Shown here: positions 9,877 to 23,752 of the stretch, piece by piece | Layout of the letters: every line of letters starts with the position of its first letter | Numbering within the stretch: the stretch's first letter is position 1 | NCBI GenBank assembly: GCA_017416145.1 | Contig: JAFQDD010000003.1 | Coordinates: 1 to 64,000, forward strand | Direction: 5' to 3' | DNA length: 64,000 bases | Source: Spirochaetaceae bacterium | GTDB lineage: Bacteria; Spirochaetota; Spirochaetia; Treponematales; Treponemataceae | Program-made: the position numbers and the translations under genes | The notes under the pieces: generated by a model | Seen by the model: only the letters and a program-made list of their open reading frames with translations | Databases searched by the model: none | What the model was told of the DNA's origin: nothing

Positions 9877-9912
9877 ATAAAACGACCTGACCTTTTCGGG
9901 AGGTGATACAAC
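9877..9912 (+). repeat. 36-bp cassette repeat, copy 1
   Basis: Consensus form (CGACCTGACC left arm, CGGGAGGTGATACAAC right). It directly follows the first Cas2-like remnant and precedes the hydrolase cassette. Confidence 0.85.
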
Positions 9913-9995
9913 TAAACAAATTTAAATTTGACTGCTAGTTTGAATTTCCGATTATGTGAAAACTGGGTTTTATCTGCGATAAAGGGAGTAAATTC

Positions 9996-10688: not shown

Positions 10689-10705
10689 TACAATTCCAAT
10701 TTGTC

Positions 10706-10734
10706 GAACAGTTGCTTTTTACAAGCAACTGTTC
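10706..10734 (+). terminator. hairpin after hydrolase cassette
   Basis: A perfect 12-bp stem, GAACAGTTGCTT paired with AAGCAACTGTTC around a five-base loop, begins 18 bases after the stop codon. The following T-run is short (TTTGAT), so termination may be weak. It ends just before repeat 2. Confidence 0.65.
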
Positions 10735-10738
10735 TTTG

Positions 10739-10774
10739 ATAAAACGACCTGACCTTTTCGGGAGGTGATACAAC
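10739..10774 (+). repeat. 36-bp cassette repeat, copy 2
   Basis: Identical to the consensus form. The next gene starts only 20 bases after it with a separate AGGAGGTGAA ribosome site; the conserved promoter seen before the related gene at 11378 is missing here. Confidence 0.85.
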
Positions 10775-10794
10775 TATATAGGAGGTGAAATATT

Positions 10795-11232
10795 ATGGAC
10801 AAATTGACGGAACAATATTTCAGAACAAAAATCAAAGAAATAAACGAGAAACTTGAAGGAAGCCACCTGCTTCAAGAAATGGCAAGAATTGCCACTGTTG
10901 GAAATTATGAAATATGTGTATACAGTGGCGAAGGTCCAACTCCTCATTTTCATTTTAAGAATGCAAAGACAGGCAAAGAAGGCTGCTTAAAAATATTAGA
11001 AAACGATTACTTCAAACATGGAAATTATCAAGCAAAGTTAAACTCAAAAGAAAGAAAAGAAATCTTTAATTTCTTAAAAGAAAATACAAAAAATAAAATT
11101 TATGCGGCAGGAACAACGAATTTTCAGATAATATGCAACGAATGGAACATAAATAATGATTCCAATCCAGTTCCTTTAGATTCAAAACTGCCAGATTACA
11201 CTGTATTGAAAAAGAAAGGCACTGGACACTAA
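10795..11232 (+). CDS. DUF4160-like small protein, PHFH type (cassette gene)
   Basis: A 145-residue soluble protein in two parts. The first ~35 residues, starting MDKLTEQYFRTKIKEINEKL and ending LLQEMA, are a charged helix shared almost word for word with the cassette proteins at 11378, 14066 and 15344. The rest has VGNYEICVYSGEGPTPHFHF, which fits the PHxHV core of DUF4160, a family often found beside toxin-antitoxin genes, with no known activity. It is followed by a 24-bp repeat and then the 36-bp repeat. Function is not assigned. Confidence 0.75.
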   Translation: MDKLTEQYFRTKIKEINEKLEGSHLLQEMARIATVGNYEICVYSGEGPTPHFHFKNAKTGKEGCLKILENDYFKHGNYQAKLNSKERKEIFNFLKENTKNKIYAAGTTNFQIICNEWNINNDSNPVPLDSKLPDYTVLKKKGTGH

Positions 11233-11233
11233 T

Positions 11234-11258
11234 CAAAGTGCGTGAGAGTATAATTCCG
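11234..11258 (+). repeat. 24-bp secondary cassette repeat, copy A
   Basis: AAAGTGCGTGAGAGTATAAT followed by TCCG, immediately after the stop codon of the DUF4160-like gene. It is a slightly diverged member of the family whose core is GGGGATAATTCCG. Confidence 0.6.
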
Positions 11259-11284
11259 AAAAATAATTTAATTGCTATGTTCGA

Positions 11285-11320
11285 ATAAAACGAACTGACC
11301 TTTTCGGGAGGTGATACAAC
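11285..11320 (+). repeat. 36-bp cassette repeat, copy 3
   Basis: One change from consensus in the left arm (CGAACTGACC). It lies 26 bases after the 24-bp repeat A. Confidence 0.85.
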
Positions 11321-11327
11321 ATTATTT

Positions 11328-11358
11328 TTGAAAATATTTGGTTAAAAAATGCTATAAT
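11328..11358 (+). promoter_or_regulatory. cassette promoter for the gene at 11378
   Basis: TTGAAA at 11328-11333 and an extended -10, TGC-TATAAT, at 11350-11358, with a 19-bp spacer. The same block occurs inverted at 15810-15840 before the related minus-strand gene, so it is a conserved, mobile promoter. Confidence 0.7.
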
Positions 11359-11377
11359 ATAAACGAGGTGAAGTATT

Positions 11378-11863
11378 ATGGATAAATTAACAGAGCAATA
11401 TTTTAGAGTTGCAATTTCAAAGATAAAAGAAAAACTTGAAGAAAAAAGAATTTATGAAAAAGAGTGCCTTCAAGAAATGTCCAGATTGGCAGCAAAGAAA
11501 AGTGGACTTCCTGTAGATTTATATATAGATGATTCTAAATCATACATCAGAGGCGGACATGCAAAAAGAATAAAGTTTCAAGCAAATTCAGATGATTCAA
11601 GAACTGAAAGTTTTTCTTCAATGACTTTTGATGGGAAGGTTGTGCCAGAAACATTTCCCAAAAAACACTCGATAAAAAGCAAAGAAATAGAAGAGATTTC
11701 TATTTTTGTAAAAAACAATGTTTTTGCATTAGAAAAGATTGCTGATAAAGAAATTGATTTTCAAGATTTTATGAATGTTATGATTAAGAAAACTGAATCT
11801 GCCACTGCAGATGAAATCTCCAAGCAAAAAGAGCAGGTAATCGAAATTATTGAAAAATCCTAA
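11378..11863 (+). CDS. constant N-terminus plus GGHAKRIKFQ domain (cassette gene)
   Basis: A 161-residue protein. It begins with the shared helix MDKLTEQYFRVAISKIKEKL and CLQEMS, but its body differs from the PHxH proteins: GLPVDLYIDDSKSYIRGGHA followed by KRIKFQ. That body is shared with the next cassette (GLPMNIWIDETSAYLNGGYA). The helix and the body therefore seem to be separable modules. AGGTGAA precedes the ATG and a strong promoter lies upstream. I do not recognise the function. Confidence 0.75.
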   Translation: MDKLTEQYFRVAISKIKEKLEEKRIYEKECLQEMSRLAAKKSGLPVDLYIDDSKSYIRGGHAKRIKFQANSDDSRTESFSSMTFDGKVVPETFPKKHSIKSKEIEEISIFVKNNVFALEKIADKEIDFQDFMNVMIKKTESATADEISKQKEQVIEIIEKS

Positions 11864-11886
11864 AAGTCCGAAAGGGGATAATTCCG
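11862..11886 (+). repeat. 24-bp secondary cassette repeat, copy B
   Basis: AAAAGTCCGAAAGGGGATAA followed by TTCCG, starting inside the stop codon of the preceding gene. It is eight bases from the next 36-bp repeat. Confidence 0.7.
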
Positions 11887-11894
11887 ATAATTAT

Positions 11895-11930
11895 ATAAAA
11901 CGACCTCCCGTTTTCGGAAGGTGATACAAC
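11895..11930 (+). repeat. 36-bp cassette repeat, copy 4
   Basis: A variant with the left arm CGACCTCCCG and right arm CGGAAGGTG, giving a longer hairpin with one mismatch. Confidence 0.85.
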
Positions 11931-11952
11931 CTAATATAATAATGGAAAAAAT

Positions 11953-12408
11953 ATGGAAGAATATAACGAACTATTTCAACAAATTTATGACAAAACCCAT
12001 TTAGAAGAAATGGCTATCTGTCGTCCAAATAAAACAGGACTTCCTATGAATATATGGATAGATGAAACAAGTGCTTACTTGAATGGTGGATATGCAAAAA
12101 GAATTAACTTCCAGATAAACAAAAATCCACTGTTTCAAACTAGTAATACTTGTCCTATGCTATTGGATGGAACTATACCAGAAAAAGCATTCGATGTGAT
12201 AAAAAATAATAAGGAGTATAATCTTACTAAAAATGATATTGAAATGGTAAGTAATTTTGTGAAGAACAATTCATACGCATTAAGTTTAATTGCTGACCAA
12301 AAAGTTTGGATAGATGATTTTTGGGGATTTTGTATAAAGGGTGGAGAAATTGCCAGTGAAGAAGAAATTGAATTATTAAAACAAAATTGTAATGCTGTCG
12401 TTCATTAA
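11953..12408 (+). CDS. GGYAKRINFQ-domain protein (cassette gene)
   Basis: A 151-residue protein related to the one at 11378 through GLPMNIWIDETSAYLNGGYA, KRINFQ and the later DIEMVSNFVKNNSYALSLIA. It lacks the full shared N-terminal helix, keeping only HLEEMA. No good ribosome site precedes 11953; a nearby ATG at 11942 is in another frame. The expected 36-bp repeat after it is missing: the array breaks at 12434, exactly where ATAAAAC would begin. A deleted second copy of this cassette is at 15980-16072. Confidence 0.7.
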   Translation: MEEYNELFQQIYDKTHLEEMAICRPNKTGLPMNIWIDETSAYLNGGYAKRINFQINKNPLFQTSNTCPMLLDGTIPEKAFDVIKNNKEYNLTKNDIEMVSNFVKNNSYALSLIADQKVWIDDFWGFCIKGGEIASEEEIELLKQNCNAVVH

Positions 12409-12631
12409 CACCTATTATAAAATATATTAGTCAATAGTCATGTGTTAAAATAACATAGGGTCAAAGTGGGCGTTACTCATCTTGGACCTTTTCAAAAATT
12501 CTACAATCCCTACAGCTAAACAAATATCCAAAATTTTCAGAAATAAACCAACTTTTTGGTAAAAATTTAGAAATATTCTTCCAAAATGCACCTATATTAT
12601 ATACAAAATTAATCCTACTGGGGGTACGAAG

Positions 12632-13126
12632 ATGATTAATTTTAAGGAATTAGACGATCTTTACACAGTGGATGTGGAGTCAGGTCTTTTCTGTTATTTA
12701 CACAGAAAAGATTCCTTGGTAAACTTTAGTGATGAATTGAAAGTTTCAGAGGCCTTTGAACTTGTAAAAAATAGAAAAATTGTAAAGGCCTTCTCTATAA
12801 GCTCTTCCTTTTCTAATCTCCAGGATTACGTTTATATTAGACAGTTAAATGAGGAAGCCAAAATTGTTGGGGGTGACACATTTGTGATGATGTTCACTCA
12901 TTTGGAAAATCTAGTTACAAAACAGCCAATCACTATTCCTGAAGATTTTACAAAAGTAGATCCTGAATACGTAGACTCCACAGTTGAAAGTATAAATAGG
13001 GTTTTCTGGCTCGCACCTGAATCAGAAGATTTAAAAGAGAAAACCTTTGTTGAAAATATGCGCAAACGCCTGAGGGATATGCTTAAATACAATACCACAA
13101 CAAAGGTAGAAGATCTTATTTCCTAG
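12632..13126 (+). CDS. SEAFE-family small protein (paralogue 1)
   Basis: A 164-residue soluble protein starting MINFKELDDLYTVDVESGL. It belongs to a local family with the proteins at 16396, 17053 and 23853, sharing the MI(N/D)F start and the VSEAFELVKN segment. A GGGGGT-type ribosome site precedes the ATG, and TATATT about 30 bases upstream may be its -10 box. No known domain is recognised. The charged C-terminus (MRKRLRDMLKYN) is unique to this copy. No 36-bp repeat follows it. Confidence 0.7.
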   Translation: MINFKELDDLYTVDVESGLFCYLHRKDSLVNFSDELKVSEAFELVKNRKIVKAFSISSSFSNLQDYVYIRQLNEEAKIVGGDTFVMMFTHLENLVTKQPITIPEDFTKVDPEYVDSTVESINRVFWLAPESEDLKEKTFVENMRKRLRDMLKYNTTTKVEDLIS

Positions 13127-13128
13127 CC

Positions 13129-13335
13129 TCAGAAGGCAAATACTTTTGCCATACTGCTCAAAATATCAAATAGATCGTTTGAATAAAAAATAGCACTTTT
13201 TTCCCACCAACGGTTGTTTGGATTCCATTGAAATTTTTGATTCTTTAAAAGAGATGTACATGTTTTAAAACCCATGTCATCCTCCTGAACTATGGAAGCT
13301 ACTTTTTTTCCGTTATTAAAACCTAAAGTTATCAT
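13129..13335 (-). CDS. small protein, unknown
   Basis: A 68-residue ORF read leftwards, starting MITLGFNNGKKVASIVQEDD after AAGGAA. The middle part QKFQWNPNNRWWEKSAIFYS has the look of a compact domain with exposed aromatics. It lies tail-to-tail with paralogue 1 and stops two bases after that gene ends. Function unknown; reality is moderately likely from composition and ribosome site. Confidence 0.5.
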   Translation of the reverse strand: MITLGFNNGKKVASIVQEDDMGFKTCTSLLKNQKFQWNPNNRWWEKSAIFYSNDLFDILSSMAKVFAF

Positions 13336-13459
13336 TTAAAAATTCCTTGCATAAAATATAGATTTTTTCTGAATTTTCCGTTATTTCAATAAGTTCTTTA
13401 CCTATATTATATATTATTATATATGAAAATGAGCTCCTGGTGGGCTCAAGGAGGAGAAT

Positions 13460-13630
13460 ATGGAAACAAAAGATAAACTTTTTGTAGCCGAATTGTTCCT
13501 GGCCCTTTTGGAGAAAGATGCCGTCAAAATGAATGACATTGTAAATTCTCTCAGAGAAGAAAAAGATGCTGAGGAAAGAATGGAAATTGAGGAAGCAAAG
13601 GCCCTTTTGAATAAATCTTCAAACACCTAG
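13460..13630 (+). CDS. small acidic helical protein
   Basis: A 56-codon ORF starting METKDKLFVAELFLALLEKD with a very strong ribosome site (AAGGAGGAGAAT). It is rich in Glu, Lys and Leu and would form one or two amphipathic helices. The size and acidity would suit an antitoxin or immunity peptide, but nothing in the sequence proves it. TATATTATTATATATG upstream supplies a promoter-like region. Confidence 0.6.
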   Translation: METKDKLFVAELFLALLEKDAVKMNDIVNSLREEKDAEERMEIEEAKALLNKSSNT

Positions 13631-13662
13631 GATTAAACTATATTATTCCAAAGGAGAAAACA

Positions 13663-13692
13663 ATGACTCAGTTTACAGAGGTTAGAAAATGA
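13663..13692 (+). CDS. nine-residue leader ORF (MTQFTEVRK)
   Basis: A tiny ORF with a good ribosome site (AAAGGAG) whose TGA overlaps the ATG of the next gene (AAATGATT). It may couple translation of the 122-residue protein, or be the vestige of a longer N-terminus after a frameshift. Confidence 0.4.
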   Translation: MTQFTEVRK

Positions 13693-14057
13693 TTTCACAG
13701 GATGCAAAAACTTTTTTGTTACAAGCAAATCAATTGCAAGAAAACTTTTCAAGGCTGATAACAGTCAATAATCTCCTTAAGGAAGCAAAAATAGATTTAT
13801 CCGCCCTTGATAAAAGACTTGGTCGTTACGATAATTATTTTGATAAAATGCTAGAGACCGCTCCAATTGATCAGGACTGGAATTTTATCCTCAAGCAACT
13901 TGAGGATAATGTAAACGAATTGAATACCTACTTTGGTTGGATTAACGATGTTGAAAGGTACGATATTCAAATAACTGAACAGGAGCTTCAAAGAATGATT
14001 CAGTATAGGAATACAATAAGGAATCAAATTCAGCAGATTCGGAATTATCCCCTCTGA
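13689..14057 (+). CDS. helical protein, unknown
   Basis: A 122-residue, strongly helical soluble protein with Q/N-rich stretches (QLQENFSRLITVNNLL, QYRNTIRNQIQQIRN). It overlaps a nine-codon leader ORF and its last codons run into a 24-bp secondary repeat (copy E, minus orientation). It meets the inverted cassettes at 14066 tail-to-tail, so this point is one edge of the inverted block. No family recognised. Confidence 0.6.
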   Translation: MISQDAKTFLLQANQLQENFSRLITVNNLLKEAKIDLSALDKRLGRYDNYFDKMLETAPIDQDWNFILKQLEDNVNELNTYFGWINDVERYDIQITEQELQRMIQYRNTIRNQIQQIRNYPL

Positions 14058-14063
14058 TACTTT
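14040..14063 (-). repeat. 24-bp secondary cassette repeat, copy E
   Basis: Read on the minus strand it is AAAGTATCAGAGGGGATAAT then TCC. It lies just after the stop of the minus-strand gene at 14066 and overlaps the end of the plus-strand gene. Confidence 0.6.
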
Positions 14064-14065
14064 GA

Positions 14066-14566
14066 TTAAATATACTGAGGTTCTTTTAATCCTTCATTAA
14101 CAACATCCTGTATATCTCGCCAAGTGGTTCTCATAGCATCCCAATTTGTTTTGTCGTTTTCAGATGCAGAACGAACAGGCTTTTTGTTTGCCCACTCTAC
14201 AATTTTATCGCCGTATTTTCCAAAATCCATATCATCTTCTTCAACTTTTTTCAAATCCTCTGCTGTTTTTGGAGGAGTCTCGGATACAATCTGAAAACGA
14301 CTATAAAATTTATGATCTATAGACCATACATGAGCGTGAGGAGGATTATGTTCCTTTTTTGAACCTTTGCTTTTTTTATCATTTCCTATTGTGCTGCCTA
14401 CAGTTACTATAATTTTATATCCATCTTCCTTTTTGCAATGAACAGCTCCCATTTCTTGTAAGCATTGAATTACTTCTGTTATTTTTGTTTTTATTTTTTT
14501 CTCTTCTAATTTAGTTTTTATGTTTTTGATTGTAGTTTTAAACCACTGTTCAGTTAATCTATCCAT
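14066..14566 (-). CDS. DUF4160-like protein, NPPHAHV type (cassette gene)
   Basis: About 166 residues. The start at 14566 (MDRLTEQWFKTTIKNIKTKL) is chosen because GGTGAG lies just upstream and because it matches the family N-terminus. The body contains HNPPHAHVWSIDHKF, the canonical DUF4160 PPHxHV core, and ends in WDAMRTTWRDIQDVV. It is followed on its own strand by 24-bp repeat E and preceded by repeat C, so it is a cassette in inverted orientation. Confidence 0.75.
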   Translation of the reverse strand: MDRLTEQWFKTTIKNIKTKLEEKKIKTKITEVIQCLQEMGAVHCKKEDGYKIIVTVGSTIGNDKKSKGSKKEHNPPHAHVWSIDHKFYSRFQIVSETPPKTAEDLKKVEEDDMDFGKYGDKIVEWANKKPVRSASENDKTNWDAMRTTWRDIQDVVNEGLKEPQYI

Positions 14567-14575
14567 AATACTCAC

Positions 14576-14599
14576 CGAAATTATCCCCTTACGTACTTT
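14576..14599 (-). repeat. 24-bp secondary cassette repeat, copy C
   Basis: On the minus strand AAAGTACGTAAGGGGATAAT then TTCG. It starts at the stop codon of the gene at 14598 and ends ten bases before the next ATG, so it also supplies the GGTGAG ribosome site region. Confidence 0.65.
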
Positions 14600-15167
14600 A
14601 ATCTACATCGTACAATTTATATTTTTCTACATAATCTACATTGTTTCTATTCATAGTTTCCATAAACTTTTCATCTAATTCAACAATATCTTTTACGGCT
14701 GCTAGCAAATGATTTACCAAATCCCTTGTCAAATTATAAATATTATTAAACTCAGGTTCTGCAGCTTTCTTTTTTATGTAGTTAATGGTATCATTATATA
14801 ATTCCCTAATATCACTAGCATTTGTAAGCAACTTATTCAAGTTATTATGCAAATAATCTGGATCTAAAGGAAAATCATCTTCAGCTGTAAGTATTTTTTG
14901 CAATTGATGTTCATATGCAGGAATGTTTTGTAGATAATTTTCCCAAGTTGTTCTAGATTGTTCTGTTAAAACTTTATATTCAGTGTTAAAAGCTTTGTTA
15001 ATTGCTTCATTTCTAGGAATGATTTTTAGGCTTGCCAATGCTGCCATTATTTTAAGTTCCAATTTTATCAAATCTTTTACGAAATTTGTTTCATCTGTAG
15101 ATTTTTTCTTTTCGTTTAATATATAATTCAAGCAATTTATTTCTTCTTTCATTTCATTTCTGTTCAT
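14598..15167 (-). CDS. helical protein, unknown (inverted cassette)
   Basis: About 189 residues, all-helical and mildly acidic, with no membrane segment. A start at 15167 (MNRNEMKEEINCLNY) is preferred because GGAGA lies eight bases upstream; the ATG at 15182 would have almost no leader behind a TATATTATAT box. The pattern of long helices with Leu/Ile spacing resembles the ORF at 18267 in style but not in sequence. It is followed by 24-bp repeat C. Confidence 0.6.
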   Translation of the reverse strand: MNRNEMKEEINCLNYILNEKKKSTDETNFVKDLIKLELKIMAALASLKIIPRNEAINKAFNTEYKVLTEQSRTTWENYLQNIPAYEHQLQKILTAEDDFPLDPDYLHNNLNKLLTNASDIRELYNDTINYIKKKAAEPEFNNIYNLTRDLVNHLLAAVKDIVELDEKFMETMNRNNVDYVEKYKLYDVD

Positions 15168-15302
15168 AGGATTCTTCTCCATATATAATATAGCTCAATT
15201 CTGACAAAAAATTTCAAATTTATGGAATATTCATATTCGTTACAAGCACTTATTGTTCTTGAAAAATGATTATTGAATTTCTTTTCCTCTAAATTCGCAT
15301 TT

Positions 15303-15326
15303 GGAATTATCCCCTGACGTACTTTT
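15303..15326 (-). repeat. 24-bp secondary cassette repeat, copy D
   Basis: On the minus strand AAAAGTACGTCAGGGGATAA then TTCC, 17 bases after the stop of the gene at 15344. It is the best-preserved copy with C and B. Confidence 0.65.
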
Positions 15327-15343
15327 GAAATAAATAAACTATT

Positions 15344-15790
15344 TTATCGATTATTGAGTGCATCCCAAACAATTTGAACAACAACCCAATTATTTACCCC
15401 TCGTTTATTATCCTTTTTTGACCATTCATAAATTGCTTTCTGATAATCTTCTGATACTTTAGGATTATCTTCAATGGCAACTATGTCTTCGGGAGATTTG
15501 GGTTGAAAGTCTGTAACTTTTACTCGAGTTATTAAATCATAATTATTATCTTTACCCGTTCTATCTATATGAGAAGCTGGAAATAAATGTAAATGAGGTT
15601 CTTCACCAGTATTTTTATATTCGCTAGTAATAACTTCTAGTCTCATACCATTTTTAAGTTCTTTACAAGCGTCTTTTCGGCAAACTGTCGCCATTTCTTG
15701 AAGAAGTTCTTCATTTATTCTTTTTCCTTCAAGTTTCTCGTTTATTTCTTTGATTTTTGTTCTGAAATATTGCCCCGTCAATTTGTCCAT
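15344..15790 (-). CDS. DUF4160-like protein, EEPHLHL type (inverted cassette)
   Basis: A 148-residue protein. The first 70 coding bases are nearly identical to those of the plus-strand gene at 10795 (MDKLTGQYFRTKIKEINEKL, then LLQEMA). The body GEEPHLHLFPASHIDRTG is a PHxH-type DUF4160-like core and the C-terminus VNNWVVVQIVWDAL parallels the 14066 protein. AGGTGAA and a conserved promoter lie upstream. It is read opposite to the 36-bp array. Confidence 0.75.
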   Translation of the reverse strand: MDKLTGQYFRTKIKEINEKLEGKRINEELLQEMATVCRKDACKELKNGMRLEVITSEYKNTGEEPHLHLFPASHIDRTGKDNNYDLITRVKVTDFQPKSPEDIVAIEDNPKVSEDYQKAIYEWSKKDNKRGVNNWVVVQIVWDALNNR

Positions 15791-15809
15791 AGTATTTCAC
15801 CTCGTTTAT

Positions 15810-15840
15810 ATTATAGCATTTTTTAACCAAATCTTTTCAA
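15810..15840 (-). promoter_or_regulatory. inverted copy of the conserved cassette promoter
   Basis: On the minus strand TTGAAA, 19 bases, then TGC-TATAAT, identical in layout to 11328-11358. The match extends about 80 bases into the coding start, forming an inverted repeat about 4.4 kb apart. Confidence 0.7.
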
Positions 15841-15943
15841 AAATAATCAATTTTTTTCTTTTGCACTAATTATATACATAAAACGAAGGTTATAAGAACT
15901 GCAATTCCTATAACCCTCTTCACAACCAAAAAAGAGATTTTAG

Positions 15944-15979
15944 ATAAAACAACCTGACCTTTTCGGGAGGTGATACAAC
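15944..15979 (+). repeat. 36-bp cassette repeat, copy 5
   Basis: Left arm CAACCTGACC, otherwise consensus. It marks the return to plus orientation after the inverted block. Confidence 0.85.
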
Positions 15980-16044
15980 CTAATATAATAAGTGAAGAAG
16001 AAATTGAATTATTAAAACAAAATTGTAATGCTGCCGTTCATTAA
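15980..16044 (+). pseudogene. deleted copy of the 11953 cassette
   Basis: The 12 bases after repeat 5 equal those after repeat 4 (CCTAATATAATA), then the sequence jumps to the last 17 codons of the 11953 gene (SEEEIELLKQNCNA, V, H, stop at 16042). About 400 bases of the ORF are missing. Homology continues through 16072, where ATAAAAC, the start of a 36-bp repeat, abuts the Cas2-like remnant. Confidence 0.8.
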
Positions 16045-16074
16045 CTACTATTATAAAAATATATTAGTCAATAA

Positions 16075-16221
16075 AACAGAATCAAAGAGTTTTTACCCAA
16101 AACAGGAACTGTAAGAATGTTAATCTTAACAGAAAATCAATTTTCTTCTTGCGTTCTGAGTCAAGAAGAAGTAGACTTACAAGAGTATCATGTTGGTGCG
16201 AAAGATTTAGTTACGCTATAA
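16075..16221 (+). pseudogene. Cas2-like C-terminal remnant, copy 2
   Basis: A 48-codon open stretch with no upstream start outside it. It reads LPKTGTVRMLILTENQF and, 25 residues later, ends KDLVTL. Type II Cas2 proteins end with the same layout: a P-K-x-G-x-V-x-x-L-x-x-TEKQF strand, a variable loop and (E/K)xLVxL. It therefore looks like the second half of a Cas2. The 5' half is gone and the join is exactly at a repeat-like ATAAAAC. Similarity is judged by eye; a profile search would settle it. Confidence 0.55.
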
Positions 16222-16241
16222 AAATGTGTGCTATACAGGTG

Positions 16242-16311
16242 GTCAAGGGCCGTTTCACTTAAACCCTTGACTCACCTTTGTTTCGGTTCTTCAAACATTG
16301 TAGAACCGAAA
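16242..16311 (+). other. two strong hairpins between Cas2 remnant and repeat 6
   Basis: Hairpin 1 pairs GTCAAGGG (16242-16249) with CCCTTGAC (16264-16271). Hairpin 2 pairs TTTCGGTTCT (16281-16290) with AGAACCGAAA (16302-16311) and runs into repeat 6. Neither has a proper T-run. They could be terminators or part of a structured leader RNA. Confidence 0.55.
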
Positions 16312-16346
16312 TAAAACGACCTGACCTTTTCGGGAGGTGATACACC
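16311..16346 (+). repeat. 36-bp cassette repeat, copy 6
   Basis: Consensus except for the last base (TACACC instead of TACAAC). Confidence 0.85.
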
Positions 16347-16395
16347 AACATTAACGAGTATAACCTATATTATTATGTGTAGGAGGAAGATAAGA

Positions 16396-16944
16396 ATGGT
16401 GGCAGAAAAACAAGTTTTTTACGATGATGAGAAAACAATTGAATTATTGGATAGATTAGTCAGCATTCAATTCCCATATGAATATGGAACAATTCACAGA
16501 GTAACACCTGATAGTGAAGTTTTTCGCATTGTTCCTAAATACAGTGCTTTAGGTCCCGGTAAAGATGGTTACAGATACACTGCTTCTGTAAAAGAAGCAT
16601 TTGAAATATTAAGAACTAACAGTAACTATAAACTTGATTGGTATACAGGACCTTGTGAATCTGTTCGTGATATAAAAATAAAATGGATGGTTTTGGATGC
16701 TTTAGGTCTTCCTTATATAAAACTTGGCGGTGAACTTGAGTCTGTTTACTGGGGAGCAAAAGAACCACTTGTTTATAGTGGCAACAGTAAAGAACAAGCT
16801 TGGGAATACTACGAAGCAAATGTAACTTTAGGTTTTGAAGAACCTAATGATGTTTACAAAAAGAAATGTGGTCCTGGTGATGCTTACCTTACATGGATTT
16901 CTGATTGCAGAAAACTTGCCGAAAAGCATCAGAAAAAAAGATAA
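16396..16944 (+). CDS. SEAFE-family protein (paralogue 2, cassette gene)
   Basis: A 182-residue soluble protein. The start at 16396 (MVAEKQVFYDDEKTIELL) is chosen because AGGAGG sits inside the longer open frame just upstream. Family markers are ASVKEAFEILR and WGAKEPLVYSGNSKEQAWEY, the latter shared with paralogues at 17053 (ESKEPVEYTGSN) and 23853 (GRKDPIQYNGTN). The promoter-like TATATTATTATG lies 20-35 bases upstream. No known fold is recognised. Confidence 0.75.
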   Translation: MVAEKQVFYDDEKTIELLDRLVSIQFPYEYGTIHRVTPDSEVFRIVPKYSALGPGKDGYRYTASVKEAFEILRTNSNYKLDWYTGPCESVRDIKIKWMVLDALGLPYIKLGGELESVYWGAKEPLVYSGNSKEQAWEYYEANVTLGFEEPNDVYKKKCGPGDAYLTWISDCRKLAEKHQKKR

Positions 16945-16969
16945 AAATCAGATAGCAATTTTATTTTCT

Positions 16970-17005
16970 ATAAAACGACCTGACCTTTTCGGGAGGTGAT
17001 ACACC
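16970..17005 (+). repeat. 36-bp cassette repeat, copy 7
   Basis: Same as copy 6, ending TACACC; 25 bases after the stop of paralogue 2. Confidence 0.85.
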
Positions 17006-17052
17006 AAAAGAACCTATATTATTAATCATAATACAGCTTATGAGGTACTAAT

Positions 17053-17478
17053 ATGATTGATTTTACGGAAATTGATAAAGAATTCAAAGTTGTTGTAGGA
17101 AAAGGACTTAGACCTTTTTTGATTTATAAAAAGAATTGGCAGTATGATGCAGGTTGTACTGTGTACACTGTTTCAGAGGCTTTCGAGAAAGTTAAAAATG
17201 GAGAAGGTGCTTTTTTTCCAAGTTACCAAATTGATTGTATGAGATTGTTCAATGGGCTTCAAAAAGAACTTGGAGATGATTATACAGAGTTTGATGTGAT
17301 TGCTGCTATAAATTGGGAATCAAAAGAACCTGTAGAGTATACAGGTTCAAATCCGATTATCCAAAACCAGTATGACTTGGCAAATGCAATTTTGGGTCTT
17401 AGAGATTGGCAGGATTTAGACATTAGCCCAAAATGGATTGAAGACTCAAAAACAGTTATAAAGACTTACTTTAACTAG
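17053..17478 (+). CDS. SEAFE-family protein (paralogue 3, cassette gene)
   Basis: A 141-residue protein starting MIDFTEIDKEFKVVVGKGLR. TVSEAFEKVKNGEGAFFPSY and the later LLxxL-type helix and ESKEPVEYTGSN align with the protein at 23853 over its full length. This is the compact form of the family, so 141-147 residues is probably the basic unit. TATATTATTAATCATAAT before it is promoter-like. Function unknown; several divergent copies in one array would suit immunity or effector-binding roles, which is inference. Confidence 0.75.
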   Translation: MIDFTEIDKEFKVVVGKGLRPFLIYKKNWQYDAGCTVYTVSEAFEKVKNGEGAFFPSYQIDCMRLFNGLQKELGDDYTEFDVIAAINWESKEPVEYTGSNPIIQNQYDLANAILGLRDWQDLDISPKWIEDSKTVIKTYFN

Positions 17479-17483
17479 ATTTA

Positions 17484-17519
17484 GTAAAACGACCTGACCT
17501 TTTCAGGAGGTGATACAAC
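17484..17519 (+). repeat. 36-bp cassette repeat, copy 8
   Basis: GTAAAAC start and one core change (TTTTCAGGAGG). It lies five bases after the stop of paralogue 3. Confidence 0.85.
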
Positions 17520-17548
17520 ATTATTATGTGTAAATGGAGGAACGAAAG

Positions 17549-18127
17549 ATGTACAGCAATTGTTTATTTGAAGCATTAAAAGCAAAAATCAAAGATCCAA
17601 AGAATGTACAGATTATATTCCTTAAAGGTGGTTTATTTGGTAAACGAGACCATTTTATGTGGATGAACAAAGATACTGTATTTCATGCCTACAATCCTAA
17701 AGGGAGCAACAATAACATTCTTTATAATGTTTCCTATAAAAAAGTTGATTTTGATGTATTCGAAGGATATGTTATAGATGCAATAAAAAAATTACCTTTA
17801 GAAACACAGCTTAAAATTGCAAAAAACTGGCATCTTAAATCAATTGAAATACCAGGTGTAGTACAATGGGCTAATTTTATAAAAGATGACGACCCTGAAT
17901 TTTCAAACATTCCAAAAACTGAAGATTTTTATTATTTGACAAAAATTCTTAGAAAAAAGCCGCTTATCAAAATATTTATTAACAGTACAATAAAAACTAT
18001 CGAGTTTGATAAACTGCTTAATTCTGAAGGTCCATTGCAATGGAAATATGTAACGCCTTTTGATAATGACTATACAGCAATTTATGGATGGTTAAGGAAC
18101 AGAAATACTTTTGTAGAGATGCAATAA
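17549..18127 (+). CDS. unknown cassette protein
   Basis: A 192-residue soluble protein starting MYSNCLFEALKAKIKDPKNV; the start is fixed by TGGAGGA just upstream, while the frame is open five codons earlier. KGGLFGKRDHFMWMNKDTVF could be the core of a compact enzyme-like fold with a Cys near the N-terminus and a His in the second motif, but I do not recognise the family. It has its own terminator, so it is a self-contained cassette. Confidence 0.65.
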   Translation: MYSNCLFEALKAKIKDPKNVQIIFLKGGLFGKRDHFMWMNKDTVFHAYNPKGSNNNILYNVSYKKVDFDVFEGYVIDAIKKLPLETQLKIAKNWHLKSIEIPGVVQWANFIKDDDPEFSNIPKTEDFYYLTKILRKKPLIKIFINSTIKTIEFDKLLNSEGPLQWKYVTPFDNDYTAIYGWLRNRNTFVEMQ

Positions 18128-18154
18128 TAATCTGTTCCGACCTTTCTTTATTGG

Positions 18155-18182
18155 ATATCCGTATTATCTACGATACGGATAT
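18155..18182 (+). terminator. terminator after the 17549 gene
   Basis: A perfect 10-bp stem ATATCCGTAT/ATACGGATAT with an eight-base loop, followed by TTTTCCCC, 28 bases after the stop. Confidence 0.7.
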
Positions 18183-18222
18183 TTTCCCCTTCTACATCAC
18201 CTGCATTATTTATTCTGTTTTG

Positions 18223-18258
18223 GTAAAACGACCTGACCATTTCGGAAGGTGATACACA
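18223..18258 (+). repeat. 36-bp cassette repeat, copy 9
   Basis: The most diverged full copy: GTAAAAC start, ACCATTTCGGAAGG core, end TACACA. Confidence 0.8.
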
Positions 18259-18266
18259 TATATGTG

Positions 18267-18764
18267 ATGAGACAAATTATGGATGACTTATACGAAAGAA
18301 TATCGAATACATTTAATGAATTAATAGAAAAAGAAGAAGAAAAATCAACTGCAATGGGCTTTGAAAAGCTTGTCAGCATGTTTGAAGATATAAGCGATAC
18401 ATTACAGTGTTTGATGATTCCGTTTACTTTGAGTTCTAAAACTGAAAGTGTATTGCAAGAAGCAGTAACTGACTATAAAGCATTTATCAAACAATATGGT
18501 CAATTGCTAAGATATATGAAAACATTCAATTCTGCCAGTCAAAACAAACCAATTGAGGATAACAATGGTTCTTTTGCCAAACGTCTTGATAATTGCATTA
18601 AAGATGTCGTTGATTTTTACAATCAAACAATGCTCAATGAAAAGAATACAAAGCAAGTTGAGCGTGTTCAAAAAGCATATTATGCTTACTTAATGTTAAG
18701 CAGAGTCTTGAATACAGCCATAAAAGTAAAACAACCTGACCTTTCGGAAGGTGATACAACATAA
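18267..18764 (+). CDS. helical protein whose end runs through repeat 10
   Basis: About 165 residues, entirely helical, soluble, acidic near the N-terminus (ELIEKEEEKS). The frame is also open from a GTG inside repeat 9; the AAGGTGAT of that repeat is the only ribosome-site-like sequence, about 13 bases before the ATG at 18267. The C-terminus VKQPDLSEGDTT is encoded by repeat 10 itself, so the original stop was probably lost when the repeat was joined. Function unknown. Confidence 0.6.
   Translation: MRQIMDDLYERISNTFNELIEKEEEKSTAMGFEKLVSMFEDISDTLQCLMIPFTLSSKTESVLQEAVTDYKAFIKQYGQLLRYMKTFNSASQNKPIEDNNGSFAKRLDNCIKDVVDFYNQTMLNEKNTKQVERVQKAYYAYLMLSRVLNTAIKVKQPDLSEGDTT
18726..18760 (+). repeat. 36-bp cassette repeat, copy 10 (35 bp)
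   Basis: One base shorter in the core (CCTTTCGGAAGG). It is translated as the tail of the preceding ORF. Confidence 0.8.
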
Positions 18765-18933
18765 AAGTATTTTTTTGAAAAAACAAAAGTACTTCGGTTT
18801 ACTTGAAAAAAATGCTTTACAGAATGAAAATCTGGTTATATTCTAAAGTTAGTTGACGAGATAAATCAACTAACAAAAACTTACAGAAGCTCGACTAGAA
18901 ATAGTTAAGCATATTTAGGAAAATCCTAAGGAG
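18761..18933 (+). ncRNA. gene-less cassette with several hairpins; candidate structured RNA
   Basis: This interval has no ORF above 14 codons. It contains a 9-bp stem GTTAGTTGA/TCAACTAAC near 18847-18873, a GAAA-capped stem in GACTAGAAATAGTT near 18892-18905, and TTAGGA-AAA-TCCTAA just before repeat 11. Three tidy hairpins in a row in the only non-coding cassette suggest an RNA product. It matches no RNA class I can name. Confidence 0.4.
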
Positions 18934-18969
18934 CTAAAACGACCTCCCGTTTTCGGGAGGTGATACACC
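18934..18969 (+). repeat. 36-bp cassette repeat, copy 11
   Basis: The perfect-hairpin variant: CGACCTCCCG and CGGGAGGTG around TTTT, ending TACACC. Confidence 0.85.
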
Positions 18970-19034
18970 TATATATGCGAAAATTTATTTACATATTTTA
19001 AGTATAGGTAGTAAAGCTACCAGGAGGTTTATAT

Positions 19035-19220
19035 ATGTGGAATACAATTAAAGTTATTATTGGAATAATAATTCTTGTATTAATTGGAATATTGATTTTC
19101 ATTATTTCGTCATCATTAGCGCCAGTGAATGCACAGGAAGTCGCTCATGGTGGAGTAGCCTTTCCAGTTATTGGTATTATTGTTCTAGGTATATGCTTAT
19201 TTTTAGATATTAAATCATAA
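19035..19220 (+). CDS. small two-segment membrane protein (cassette gene)
   Basis: A 61-residue protein with two hydrophobic helices: residues 5-27 (VIIGIIILVLIGILIFIISS) and about 42-58 (VAFPVIGIIVLGICLF), joined by a short loop. AGGAGG precedes the ATG at ideal spacing. It is the only ORF of the last full cassette. Size and topology would fit a membrane-active toxin, a holin-like protein or a small subunit; nothing more can be said. Confidence 0.65.
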   Translation: MWNTIKVIIGIIILVLIGILIFIISSSLAPVNAQEVAHGGVAFPVIGIIVLGICLFLDIKS

Positions 19221-19226
19221 GCTTGG

Positions 19227-19262
19227 GTAAAACGACCTCCCGTTTTCGGGAGGTGATACAAC
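19227..19262 (+). repeat. 36-bp cassette repeat, copy 12 (last)
   Basis: Perfect-hairpin variant with GTAAAAC start and TACAAC end. No further copy follows in the window. Confidence 0.85.
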
Positions 19263-19340
19263 ATAGTACGATTTATGCCATTTGACAACATCTTTTTCAA
19301 TTATTGCAATTTTTTTAATCCCTTGAAACAATATCTGAAT

Positions 19341-19445
19341 TCTCTTGAATTTTTCTACAAAATCTCTTGAATTTTTTCACCAAAACTCTTGAATTTTTCT
19401 GTAAAATCTCTTAAATTTTTTCACAAAATCTCTTGAATTTTTGTT
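19341..19445. repeat. 22-bp tandem repeat, about 4.7 units
   Basis: Units begin with (T/A)CTCTTGAATTTTT at 19341, 19363, 19385, 19407 and 19429, each followed by a C/A-containing tail and AAAA. The exact 22-bp spacing equals two helical turns. No frame stays open through it. It lies between the last cassette repeat and the transposon. Confidence 0.8.
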
Positions 19446-19463
19446 CTTAACATCTTGATGTTT

Positions 19464-19471
19464 TTTCAATT
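19464..19471. repeat. 8-bp target-site duplication, left
   Basis: TTTCAATT directly before the left inverted repeat, identical to 23745-23752. Confidence 0.9.
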
Positions 19472-19553
19472 GGCTCTGTACGGAAATTATATTGTTTTGC
19501 GTAAAAAAAAGACAAACCGTTTTAATACTTTGTATTTTATCAAAAAAACTTTT

Positions 19554-20696
19554 CTAAACTACATCTTCTAATTTATCACCATACGGTAAAGATTTAATAT
19601 AATTTTCCATGAACTTCCAATCTGGAACAAACCCTTCTTCAGAATATTTATGAGTTTCGTCTGTAAATGGTGTTCCATCTTCATTATGTAAAATTGGAAG
19701 TTTGACAATTATTTCATCTATATGAACCCTGTATTTTCTTCCATGAGAATATTTATATTTGTCTAAATCAAGTACTGTAACTAAAAATAGTGCATTTGAT
19801 TTAGTTAGTGCATCGTCATATCCAATAGAAATAGTTGTAGAACCTATAAAATCACTTTCTATATAATTTGTATATCCACATGAACCTTCACCATCACATA
19901 TAAATATTATTCCATGACCTTTTGTAACAAGTTCTGGTTCTAATGATACCGAACGCATAACTCCATTGTCTGTTTTTTTTGCTCCAATATAATTAATATC
20001 AGTACCATCTTCTAAATTTCCAGCATTACCACATTTACAGTTTTCTATTTCAAATAAACCAGCTTGTTGTCTTGTTCTTGAAATTTTAAAGTCTTTCCAG
20101 TTCTGTATGTCTAATTTGGCATTTTGATTCGCTTTGTTTTTTGTCGTTAAAGATTTATAATGCAATGACATCATATAATTTTCTATATAGTTCCAATCTG
20201 GAACATAACCTTCTTCTGAATATTTATGAGTTTCATCTATAAATGGAGTTTCATCTTCTTTATATAAAATTGGTAACTTTATATTAAAATCTCTGTTAAT
20301 ATGGGTGTTGAGTTCTCTACCGAAAGCATAATATTTAATTTTGCTTTCGTATCTAACAAGACTAGAAATAAACAAATTTATGCTATGTGTCATTTCTTTT
20401 GCTTTGGCTTCCATTACGGCAACATTCTGTCCTGTATAAAAAGGCTCTTCCTGAACAAAACAAGAACCAAGATAACTACCACCAAGTGCTACTGTTAGAA
20501 GTCCTGCTCTGTATGGAATAACATTTTCTACAAAATCTACTTTACCATCTACACCATTATTATAACTAACTCTCGACACAAAATTAACTTGTGGTTCTTC
20601 ATCTGTCATTTTATTCTTATCAAATTTATTACCCATTTTAATTGTATATAAATCCTTAAGATAAAAAGTTTTCCAATTTTCTGTTTTAAGACTCAT
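19554..20696 (-). CDS. specificity subunit of BcgI-like R-M system
   Basis: A 380-residue protein made of two similar halves, each a target-recognition domain followed by a conserved helix: ETHKYSEEGYVPDWNYIENY near residue 155 and ETHKYSEEGFVPDWKFMENY near 350. Two such halves read the two parts of a split recognition site. It overlaps the nuclease/methyltransferase gene by 11 bases, showing co-translation. It most resembles the B (S) subunit of BcgI-type systems rather than a classic HsdS because the partner carries its own nuclease domain. Confidence 0.85.
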   Translation of the reverse strand: MSLKTENWKTFYLKDLYTIKMGNKFDKNKMTDEEPQVNFVSRVSYNNGVDGKVDFVENVIPYRAGLLTVALGGSYLGSCFVQEEPFYTGQNVAVMEAKAKEMTHSINLFISSLVRYESKIKYYAFGRELNTHINRDFNIKLPILYKEDETPFIDETHKYSEEGYVPDWNYIENYMMSLHYKSLTTKNKANQNAKLDIQNWKDFKISRTRQQAGLFEIENCKCGNAGNLEDGTDINYIGAKKTDNGVMRSVSLEPELVTKGHGIIFICDGEGSCGYTNYIESDFIGSTTISIGYDDALTKSNALFLVTVLDLDKYKYSHGRKYRVHIDEIIVKLPILHNEDGTPFTDETHKYSEEGFVPDWKFMENYIKSLPYGDKLEDVV

Positions 20697-22614
20697 GTAT
20701 TTTACCCTCCTTCATCATATAAGCAAGGTAATTATTTAATGTCTGTTGAAAGTCTGCTTCTGTAAGTTTTGTATAATCTGTTTTCATGTATGCTTCGCAA
20801 AGCCATTCTGCATTACCATCTACAATAGCAACAGAAGATTTTCCATCAACTGCTTTTTTTGTTTCAAATAAATCCAACCATTCTTGTTCTATTGCTTTCC
20901 ACTTTGAATCTCCGTTAGAATCAAACTGTTCAATGCGACCTAAATTTTTCTTTTTCTTGAAACCATCTTCTTTACAATAGCCAAAGAATGTAGTTCTTGA
21001 AGTTCCATCTGGTTTAATGTGTGGTTGTCCTAATGTAAACAACATACAACAAGCAGAAACAGCAGCTCCAGGGTAAAAAATTTCAGCTGGTAGCGTAAAT
21101 ACTGCTTCTAAGGTATTATTTTCAAGCATTGCATTTTTTTCTTCTGTAATAATATTACTTGTTCCGATAGCCGCTGAAACAGGAAGCAAGACTGCTAATT
21201 TAACAGTTTTTATTGGTTGGTGATTTTGCTCTCTTTCTTCGTTCATTCTCTTAATTACATCAGACAAGAAATGGATAAATACCATTCCCTTTGTTGGGTC
21301 TTCTTTTCCATCTTTGGCAGAGGCTGCCCAATTTTTCTTATATTCAGATGGTATTCCAATAGGCTTCGCATTATAAGGTGGATTCATTAATATAATGTCT
21401 GGATTTGCTTGTCTAATAAAATCCTCACAGTCAAAACAACTTTTGAATTTAATATTTGAGTTTCCATCTCCATGAATAAGCATATTTGTTGTAGCAAGTC
21501 CATACGCTTTTTCTTCAATTTCAATACCAAAAATGTGTTGTTTCTTAACAGTTTCTTGAAGTTGTTTAGCTTCTTCTTCCGTTTTGCCTCTACGACAATC
21601 TGCAAGTTCTTTTACCATAGCTTGTACAAGAAACGAACCACTTCCACAGGTTGCGTCAAGAACAACCTTTGTTCTATCTACTTCTGTTAATCGACACATA
21701 AAATCTGTTATGTGGTCTGGTGTAAATGCTTGGTTCTTATCTGCTTTTCCTGTGTATTTATTAAAAGCAATAAAGAAAAGGTTTAATATATCCTGACCTT
21801 CTGAACTATCAGCATCAATGTATTTATAAATATCTGTAAGTATAGTGTCTAATATTTTAATCCAGTTTGCTGTTGTAAGTTTTCTTACTTTCTGGTCGTT
21901 TAAAACATTCTTCTGTAATAACTCAACCTTTTTTGTTTTATTCTCTGAACCATCAAGATGATTTGTAAGTGTAGATTCAATAGCGGCACGAATAGATTTT
22001 TCATCCATCATAGACCATACAGCATTTAAATCTTCTGTTAGCTTATCATCAATTTTTGTAGCACCTTTCTTTTCAACCATGCTTTTAAGGTACAAAAGAG
22101 TTGTTCCGACAAATTGACTTCTTAATCTTTCGTCTATGTCCATCTTATGTAATAGTTCATTCAAATCATAAGTATTCTTTAATACCTTTTCTCTGTCGTT
22201 CTGCTTACTGATATTGAATATCTTGGCATAATGTTCCATTGTATCAAGGACTGTTTCATCATTAAGCACATGACTATCATCTACAAAAGATTTCCATACC
22301 TTGATTTTATTGTTGTTAGTATTAGCAAGAATACAAATAACTTTCTTACCTTTATGTAATGCTCTTTCTTCTTCTAAATAATCTGCAAGTTGTTGTTCGT
22401 CTGATTTTACAAAATTCTGTTTTGTTTCTACAAGCACAACGACATCGTTCATCTCAAAACGAATATCTAATTTAAAATGATTAACAGGGTGTCCTACTGC
22501 TTTTTCAAGCGTTGCTTTAGAACCAGCTTCTTGAACATAGCTGTATTCTCCACCCTCTATATTTGCTGTATAATACTGTATTCCAATTTTATTTATAATA
22601 GAGGTTCTGTCCAT
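20686..22614 (-). CDS. fused nuclease-methyltransferase, BcgI A-subunit-like
   Basis: About 642 residues from MDRTSIINKIGIQYY; this start follows AAGGA at good spacing, while the frame is open 11 codons earlier. The N-terminal domain has a PD-(D/E)xK-type core, D50 in KLDIRFEM and E63-T-K65 in VLVETKQ. A helical linker leads to a gamma-class adenine methyltransferase with DATCGSGSFLVQA and catalytic NPPY near residue 410. Such a chain both cuts and methylates, with the downstream subunit giving specificity. No separate HsdR is present, which fits a type IIB/BcgI-like system. Confidence 0.85.
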   Translation of the reverse strand: MDRTSIINKIGIQYYTANIEGGEYSYVQEAGSKATLEKAVGHPVNHFKLDIRFEMNDVVVLVETKQNFVKSDEQQLADYLEEERALHKGKKVICILANTNNNKIKVWKSFVDDSHVLNDETVLDTMEHYAKIFNISKQNDREKVLKNTYDLNELLHKMDIDERLRSQFVGTTLLYLKSMVEKKGATKIDDKLTEDLNAVWSMMDEKSIRAAIESTLTNHLDGSENKTKKVELLQKNVLNDQKVRKLTTANWIKILDTILTDIYKYIDADSSEGQDILNLFFIAFNKYTGKADKNQAFTPDHITDFMCRLTEVDRTKVVLDATCGSGSFLVQAMVKELADCRRGKTEEEAKQLQETVKKQHIFGIEIEEKAYGLATTNMLIHGDGNSNIKFKSCFDCEDFIRQANPDIILMNPPYNAKPIGIPSEYKKNWAASAKDGKEDPTKGMVFIHFLSDVIKRMNEEREQNHQPIKTVKLAVLLPVSAAIGTSNIITEEKNAMLENNTLEAVFTLPAEIFYPGAAVSACCMLFTLGQPHIKPDGTSRTTFFGYCKEDGFKKKKNLGRIEQFDSNGDSKWKAIEQEWLDLFETKKAVDGKSSVAIVDGNAEWLCEAYMKTDYTKLTEADFQQTLNNYLAYMMKEGKIHES

Positions 22615-22649
22615 TTTAATTATTCCTTTATATTTCAAATTTTTCAATT

Positions 22650-23676
22650 TTATGCTATTATTGGCAATGCAGGTCTGTTTTTTATTTCCTTGCTCAATAT
22701 CTTTTTATCGGTTGTGAAAACATAAGACATAAAAATATTTTTCTTTTCAGTCCATGTTTCCTTACTATAATTTAAGATGTTATTCCATATTAAGTAGTTG
22801 TTCAAGTATTTTGTTGAAACACCCTTAAATCTTTGTATAAACATTTTTAACATACTGTGATAACTATTTATGTGTTGAAGGTGGTAAATCCCTTTCTTTG
22901 ATTTTCCAGATTTTAGTTGTATTAATTCAATGTTATTTGATTCTGCGAATTTTATACGAGAGTTCATATCATCAGTACAAAGAATAGAATGTTCTTCGAT
23001 TCTGTTATCAAATACATTATGAAGATTTAGAGTTGATACACGACCTAAATTTGAGACTTTTGCAATAGAGAGACCATTACGATTTATCGCACAAGGAACG
23101 CATACATTTTCATGCGACAGTCCTCTTATATGAGTTTGTTTTCCACGATGATGTGCTTCTCTTGGCATTACAAACTTACTATTTTGTGATTTCCCTTGTA
23201 CGAAATGAAAAAAAAGTTTCATCTCCTTCGATGATACAATCTAATTTTACAGATTCAGCCATATTTTGAAGAGCGTTTAGTATTTTATGTCTCCATTCAA
23301 ATGCAGTTGATTTATTTATTCCACATTTTTCAGCAGCTTTACGAATAGAATATCCTTCCATCATGCAATCAATATATTGATTCCAAACTAATAAATCTTT
23401 TTTTGTAGAAGAAACAATGGTATTTGTTGTTATGTTAAAAGTTTTTTTGCAATCAAGACAAAGATAACGCTGAACATTGTTTTTATGTCCATTTCTTTTT
23501 ATGTGATTAGATTTACAATGCGGACAAAAAGCACCAGAAGAAAATCTTTTTTCAGTAACATAATTAATTAAATTATTTTGCTTTGTTATTGTACTTGAAA
23601 TCATATCTTTTAATTTTTCTCTATCATTTTCAGAAAGAGTTTTTACTAAATCAAAAATATCATTCAATGTAGCCAT
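22650..23676 (-). pseudogene. IS1595/ISXO2-like transposase, split by a frameshift
   Basis: Frame 1 (23676 to 23179) has the N-terminal zinc ribbon CPHCKSNHIKRNG...YLCLDCKKTF, a helix-turn-helix YSIRKAAEKCGINKSTAFEW and the first catalytic motif EGDETFF. Frame 2 (23222 to 22650) continues with NSKFVMPREAHHRGKQTHIR, CTDDMNS and HLQHINSYHSMLK...FKGVSTKYLNNYLIW. The frames join by +1 in a run of seven T at about 23205-23215. It may be a dead gene, or expressed by slippage at the homopolymer, as the ends and duplication look intact. Confidence 0.85.
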
Positions 23677-23744
23677 AGATTACCTCCATAGCTACATAAT
23701 ATAATAGGTTTAAATTAAAAGCAACACTTTATCCGTACAGAGCC

Positions 23745-23752
23745 TTTCAATT
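23745..23752. repeat. 8-bp target-site duplication, right
   Basis: TTTCAATT directly after the right inverted repeat, matching 19464-19471. Confidence 0.9.

What the first reader, a model, noticed from the sequence alone, without database searches (positions are those of the whole stretch)
19472..23744. IS1595-family transposon carrying a complete BcgI-like restriction-modification pair
Seen: perfect 13-bp inverted repeats, perfect 8-bp duplication TTTCAATT, a transposase, and two passenger genes with overlapping ends. The larger passenger has a D50/E63-T-K65 nuclease core plus an NPPY methyltransferase, and the smaller has two target-recognition domains. Known: IS1595 relatives can carry passengers. 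Inference: an R-M system that moves as one small transposon, spreading selfishly or as portable defence.
Basis: partly seen in the sequence, partly recalled or inferred. Interest (0 to 1): 0.75.

Follow-up and report, generated by a model that had tools for sequence, protein, structure and literature searches.

The report
Transposon carrying a restriction-modification system
A small jumping element of a known family carries a two-gene DNA restriction-modification (anti-phage) system as cargo; relatives of the same transposon family, two of them inside phage genomes, carry other restriction systems, although the jumping enzyme in this copy looks broken.

Summary
Window 19472-23744 (4,273 bp) is bounded by perfect 13-bp inverted repeats (GGCTCTGTACGGA) and a perfect 8-bp target duplication (TTTCAATT). 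It holds an IS1595-family transposase and two overlapping genes: an RM subunit (PD-(D/E)xK nuclease plus N6-adenine methyltransferase) and a two-domain specificity subunit, the layout of BcgI/BsaXI-type (Type IIB) enzymes. The closest named relatives are ISSag10/ISCco2 (57% identical transposase); ISSag10 carries lnu(C). Most relatives examined carry cargo, and restriction systems recur: a phage contig with the same terminus, a 78%-identical transposase end and an EcoRI-type methylase plus GmrSD/HNH nuclease; a second phage with a transposase-less, duplication-flanked element holding a Type IIG-like enzyme; ISCaje5 with a methylase, nuclease-like ORF and controller-like HTH; an H. pylori plasmid copy between AlwI and a methylase. 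Close relatives of the R-M pair elsewhere lack this transposon, so the pairing is a capture. This is a new, phage-reaching variant of a known kind: a passenger-bearing IS1595 transposon. Activity is untested.

The parts
19464..19471 (.). left copy of 8-bp target duplication TTTCAATT
   Evidence: sequence
19472..19484 (+). left terminal inverted repeat GGCTCTGTACGGA (outer part of a 27-nt, 78% complementary repeat)
19554..20696 (-). gene B: specificity (S) subunit, 380 aa, two internally duplicated target-recognition halves
   Evidence: Pfam Methylase_S 4e-20; PADLOC Specificity_II 2e-30; N half vs C half 33% over 188 aa, E 3e-28
20686..22614 (-). gene A: RM subunit, 642 aa from ATG 22614; PD-(D/E)xK nuclease (D50, E63, K65), helical connector, N6-adenine methyltransferase (NPPY 411-414)
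   Evidence: Pfam N6_Mtase 1e-24; PADLOC REase_MTase_IIG 1e-43; invariant residues; fold matches M subunits and BsaXI
22615..22649 (-). 35-nt gap between transposase stop and gene A start, with a ribosome-binding-like AAAGGA; similar 34-nt leader in the phage element L060
22650..23676 (-). IS1595-family transposase, split in two ORFs (23179-23676 and 22650-23222) by two frameshifts about 35 nt apart at homopolymer runs
   Evidence: NCBIfam transpos_IS1595 3e-28 and 8e-18 for the two parts; frames compared with intact relatives
23732..23744 (-). right terminal inverted repeat GGCTCTGTACGGA
23745..23752 (.). right copy of target duplication TTTCAATT

Best explanation
This is a single-unit IS1595-family transposon of the ISSag10 branch. 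Its transposase recognises the GGCTCTGTACGGA ends, and it inserted into AT-rich DNA with an 8-bp duplication (shown by sequence). Downstream of the transposase, in the same direction, it captured a two-gene R-M system: subunit A cuts and methylates adenine, and subunit B supplies two target-recognition domains for a split target (inferred from domains, conserved residues and fold). The system most likely methylates the host genome at a bipartite motif and cuts unmethylated DNA such as phage. That protects the host and also penalises loss of the element. This copy was mobile, but its transposase is now probably inactive, so it would move only with a transposase supplied in trans (inferred).
For: IR/TSD anatomy and simulation. 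IS1595 profile hits. ISSag10 and ISCco2 57% identical; ISSag10 has the same ends-plus-8-bp-TSD layout. R-M domains. Catalytic residues invariant in relatives. Fold matches M subunits and BsaXI: Foldseek E 4e-10, VIA-align Z 19.5 over 378 residues, rmsd 3.9. Both R-M frames are open while the transposase is not. Cargo swap in same-ended or same-family elements.
Against: No empty site could be found, because genus relatives lack the flanks. No activity data. The AlphaFold model is middling (mean pLDDT 69) and the VIA-align hits barely cover the nuclease domain. The frameshifts lie at homopolymers and may be sequencing errors, in which case the element is still autonomous.
Confidence: 0.86

Rival explanations
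1. The element is a dead relic: the transposase is truly inactivated and the R-M pair is now a fixed chromosomal system with no remaining mobility.
For: Two frameshifts in the transposase; single copy in the genome.
Against: A- and B-gene frames, IRs and TSD are all intact; both shifts lie at homopolymers, where assembly errors concentrate; an intact 59%-identical transposase sits on own contig C23, but its element has different ends (GGCTATGTCCGTA).
Confidence: 0.45
2. The cargo is not Type IIB but another RM+S arrangement (for example one-sided cutting), or a methyltransferase with an inert nuclease.
For: Best sequence and structure matches are Type I M subunits; the side of cutting cannot be read from sequence.
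Against: Nuclease residues D50, E63 and K65 are invariant across relatives; RM and S gene layout as in BsaXI/BcgI (PMC11997821); no helicase/translocase gene in the element.
Confidence: 0.3
3. The R-M pair only happens to lie between two repeats that look like transposon ends.
For: Close relatives of A and B (60-80%) occur elsewhere without this transposase, one between lysS-like and other chromosomal genes.
Against: The pair lies inside perfect ends and a perfect target duplication together with the matching transposase; chance about 0.005 per window before the transposase is considered.
Confidence: 0.03

Closest known systems
ISSag10 / MTnSag1 (IS1595 family; lnu(C) cargo) and tISCpe8 (lnu(P))
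   Same: Transposase about 57% identical; GGCTCTGT ends; 8-bp TSD; cargo directly downstream of the transposase (PMC5704250).
   Different: Cargo is a lincosamide-resistance gene; 1.7-2.0 kb; MTnSag1 and tISCpe8 are mobilizable by Tn916 (PMC5704250), untested here.
ISCaje5 (Campylobacter coli plasmid NZ_CP082875)
   Same: IS1595 element with perfect 8-bp TSD and R-M-type cargo: N6/N4 methylase, nuclease-like 188-aa ORF, controller-like HTH.
   Different: Transposase only 42% identical; the methylase and other cargo genes are of unrelated families.
BsaXI / BcgI Type IIB R-M enzymes
   Same: Separate RM and S genes; N-terminal PD-(D/E)xK nuclease; two TRDs (PMC11997821).
   Different: Low sequence identity (13-17% to BsaXI); cutting on both sides not shown; those enzymes are not described as transposon cargo in the papers read.
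IS-linked or composite-transposon R-M systems (PaeR7I movement with IS1/IS5; R-M genes flanked by two IS copies)
   Same: R-M genes associated with IS elements (PMC3031569).
   Different: Here one IS unit with its own ends encloses the R-M genes; there is no second IS copy.

Membership tests
IS1595 family transposon | transposase of the IS1595/ISXO2 type with zinc-ribbon N-terminus | tested here: met
   NF033547 3e-28 and 8e-18 on the two halves, NF050000 6e-15, PF12762 above its cut-off
IS1595 family transposon | terminal inverted repeats of the family type (GGC...) and 8-bp target duplication | tested here: met
   same layout in ISSag10, ISCaje5 and other relatives
IS1595 family transposon able to move on its own | intact transposase reading frame | tested here: not met
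   two frameshifts relative to relatives; sequencing error not excluded. This bears on present activity, not on family membership
ISSag10-type passenger transposon | cargo immediately downstream of and co-directional with the transposase, inside the ends | tested here: met
   gap about 35 nt here, 34 nt in L060, about 24 nt in ISSag10, about 29 nt in ISCaje5
ISSag10-type passenger transposon | mobilization by a conjugative element | not tested
   no oriT search done
Type IIB (BcgI/BsaXI) R-M | RM fusion subunit with PD-(D/E)xK nuclease and N6-adenine methyltransferase | tested here: met
   by domains, invariant residues and fold:
Type IIB (BcgI/BsaXI) R-M | separate S subunit with two target-recognition domains | tested here: met
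Type IIB (BcgI/BsaXI) R-M | cleavage on both sides of a bipartite site | not testable with these tools
   needs enzyme
Composite transposon | two flanking IS copies | tested here: not met
   ends are single 13-bp repeats, one transposase, no further copy of the ends in the genome

The most novel reading that the evidence does not exclude
IS1595 transposons of the ISSag10/ISCaje5 branches are a recurrent vehicle for whole R-M systems. They repeatedly capture unrelated systems directly behind the transposase and move them between bacterial chromosomes, plasmids and phage genomes, in some cases as transposase-less cassettes.
Probability: 0.4. Interest if true: 0.62.

Novelty: new variant of a known kind. 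Interest (0 to 1): 0.47.

Why it matters
[quoted passage not shown] A compact transposon family that repeatedly picks up complete systems and inserts in phage genomes would give a concrete, testable route. It would also link antibiotic-resistance cargo (lnu(C)) and anti-phage cargo on the same kind of element.

Tried and rejected
Composite transposon: rejected, single copy of the ends and one transposase. Programmed frameshift of the transposase at the 8-T run: considered, then rejected as the simple reading, because two shifts are needed and the conserved ISYKGNHK stretch is in a third frame. Empty-site search in seven genus genomes: flanking DNA absent. A search of 393 genomes of the phylum for the extended end pattern found only this genome. 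Viral contigs for gene A: none. A broader end pattern in viral contigs gave only the same two phages. A second order-wide genome search returned the same set of matches as the first. Genomes holding close A-gene relatives carry no transposase of this branch. Phage-host link for the L068 phage: a 78%-identical relative of its enzyme lies in a same-family genome, but another phage protein gave only about 35% matches, so the host stays open. The PDB sequence search of B gave nothing. VIA-align aligned the nuclease domain of A only with DrdV among the rows shown.

Full report
Observation. The window at 19472-23744 carries perfect 13-bp inverted ends (GGCTCTGTACGGA) flanked by a perfect 8-bp direct repeat, TTTCAATT. 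A pair of perfect 13-bp ends directly bounded by a perfect 8-bp repeat occurs once in the window and once in total in 200 simulated windows. The end sequence occurs nowhere else in the 2.9-Mb genome.

Transposase. Two overlapping ORFs match the two halves of the IS1595 transposase profile. Against intact relatives (own contig C23, 59%; a family member, 53%; ISSag10 and ISCco2, 57%) the frame changes twice within about 35 nt. The conserved ISYKGNHK stretch lies in the third frame between the two ORFs. Both changes lie at homopolymer runs. Either the copy is inactive or the assembly has errors there. Searches used a simple read-through of the two ORFs.

Cargo. Gene A really starts at ATG 22614: its relatives begin there, and numbering from it gives D50, E63, T64 and K65, all invariant in 11 relatives, as is NPPY. 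A matches N6_Mtase and Type IIG RM profiles, and B matches Methylase_S and Type II specificity profiles. B is an internal duplication, 33% over 188 aa, E 3e-28. AlphaFold (mean pLDDT 69) places A with Type I M subunits and with the Type IIB enzyme BsaXI. In BsaXI the catalytic set is E, D, E-x-K in the N-terminal domain (PMC11997821), a pattern A also shows. The A and B genes overlap by 11 nt, and A starts 35 nt after the transposase stop.

Is the pairing fixed? No. Relatives of A at 60-80% identity lie next to B relatives in Eubacteriales, Elusimicrobia, Synergistaceae, Bacilli, Alphaproteobacteria and Adlercreutzia, without this transposase nearby or elsewhere in the genomes tested. In some the two are one chain. 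The R-M pair therefore travels by other means too; the transposon captured it.

What do relatives of the transposon carry? Elements with the same or similar ends were examined. (1) An IMG/VR phage contig (L060/L069) ends inside a transposase whose last 50 residues are 78% identical. After a 34-nt leader follow an EcoRI-type methylase (PF13651, 2e-67) and a GmrSD_N-HNH nuclease (PF03235, PF01844; PADLOC Type II REase 1e-26), then the exact GGCTCTGTACGGA end. The same contig carries phage-type genes: a ParB-like protein (phrog_2159) and a PAPS-reductase-type gene (phrog_2302). (2) A 73.6-kb IMG/VR phage contig (L068 6850-9467) has ends with 3 and 0 mismatches and an exact 8-bp duplication ATTAAAAA around a single 824-aa gene and no transposase. 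That gene has invariant D46, E60-x-K62 and an NPxY-type motif (N393, P395, Y396) in an alignment of 14, and its model best matches the enzymes DrdV and BpuSI, so it is a single-chain R-M enzyme candidate. (3) ISCaje5 in a C. coli plasmid has an 8-bp duplication ATTAATTT and contains a methylase, a nuclease-like 188-aa protein and a controller-like HTH; the nuclease reading of the 188-aa protein rests on its DAK-type motif, seen by eye. (4) On an H. pylori plasmid an IS1595 transposase lies between RE_AlwI and a D12 methylase; a family-like left end is present, and no matching right end was found. Other cargo: lnu(C), a leucine-rich repeat protein in the element on own contig C23, a DinB-like protein, a P-loop kinase-like protein and a TraX-like protein (both judged by eye). 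So cargo is usual in this group and R-M is one recurrent kind. In a transposase tree R-M cargo appears in two separate branches, with unrelated systems.

Mechanism. Most likely the transposase acts on the ends and the cargo rides along, probably read from the transposase side because it lies directly downstream. The R-M pair methylates a split adenine motif and cuts unmodified DNA. Shown: anatomy, target duplication, conserved residues, cargo variety. Inferred: methylation, cutting, defence or stabilising effect, loss of autonomy.

Known or new. Passenger-bearing IS1595 elements are known (MTnSag1, tISCpe8; PMC5704250). R-M systems on IS elements or composite transposons are known (PMC3031569). 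R-M systems are reported nearly absent from phages other than prophages (PMC4176335). I found no paper describing R-M cargo in IS1595 elements; the search covered open-access full text only, and ISfinder was not available. The sample is small and was partly found by searching from this finding, so the recurrence is suggestive, not a measured enrichment.

Noticed in passing
window 9879-19260: A repeated hairpin-like element (TAAAACGACCTCCCGTTTTCGGGAGGTGATACA and variants, at least 8 copies) separates single small same-strand ORFs, like a gene-cassette array; another array lies on own contig C10 near 146-149 kb. No integron integrase passed the TIGR02249 cut-off.
   Followed up: partly
window 19317-19448: About six 22-nt direct repeats (AATCTCTTGAATTTTTTCACAA) lie just left of the transposon; similar sequence at C9:103248 and C19:36067.
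   Followed up: no
L061 5426-8076 (own contig C23): A second IS1595 element with intact transposase (IR GGCTATGTCCGTA, duplication TAGTTTAA) carrying a 173-aa protein and an LRR_5 protein as cargo.
   Followed up: partly
L068 6850-9467: Transposase-less, duplication-flanked cassette in a phage genome with a single Type IIG-like R-M gene; that protein family has many relatives in large phage contigs and no PADLOC or PHROG match.
   Followed up: yes
L027, L028, L031, L066: Relatives in which the A and B parts are fused in one chain.
   Followed up: no
L131 1649-5282: H. pylori plasmid pY95: IS1595 transposase between RE_AlwI and a D12 methylase; no matching right end found, an IS200/IS605 transposase gene begins there.
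   Followed up: partly
L075 6001-7037: Phage-borne ISSag10-like transposase also split into two frames.
   Followed up: no
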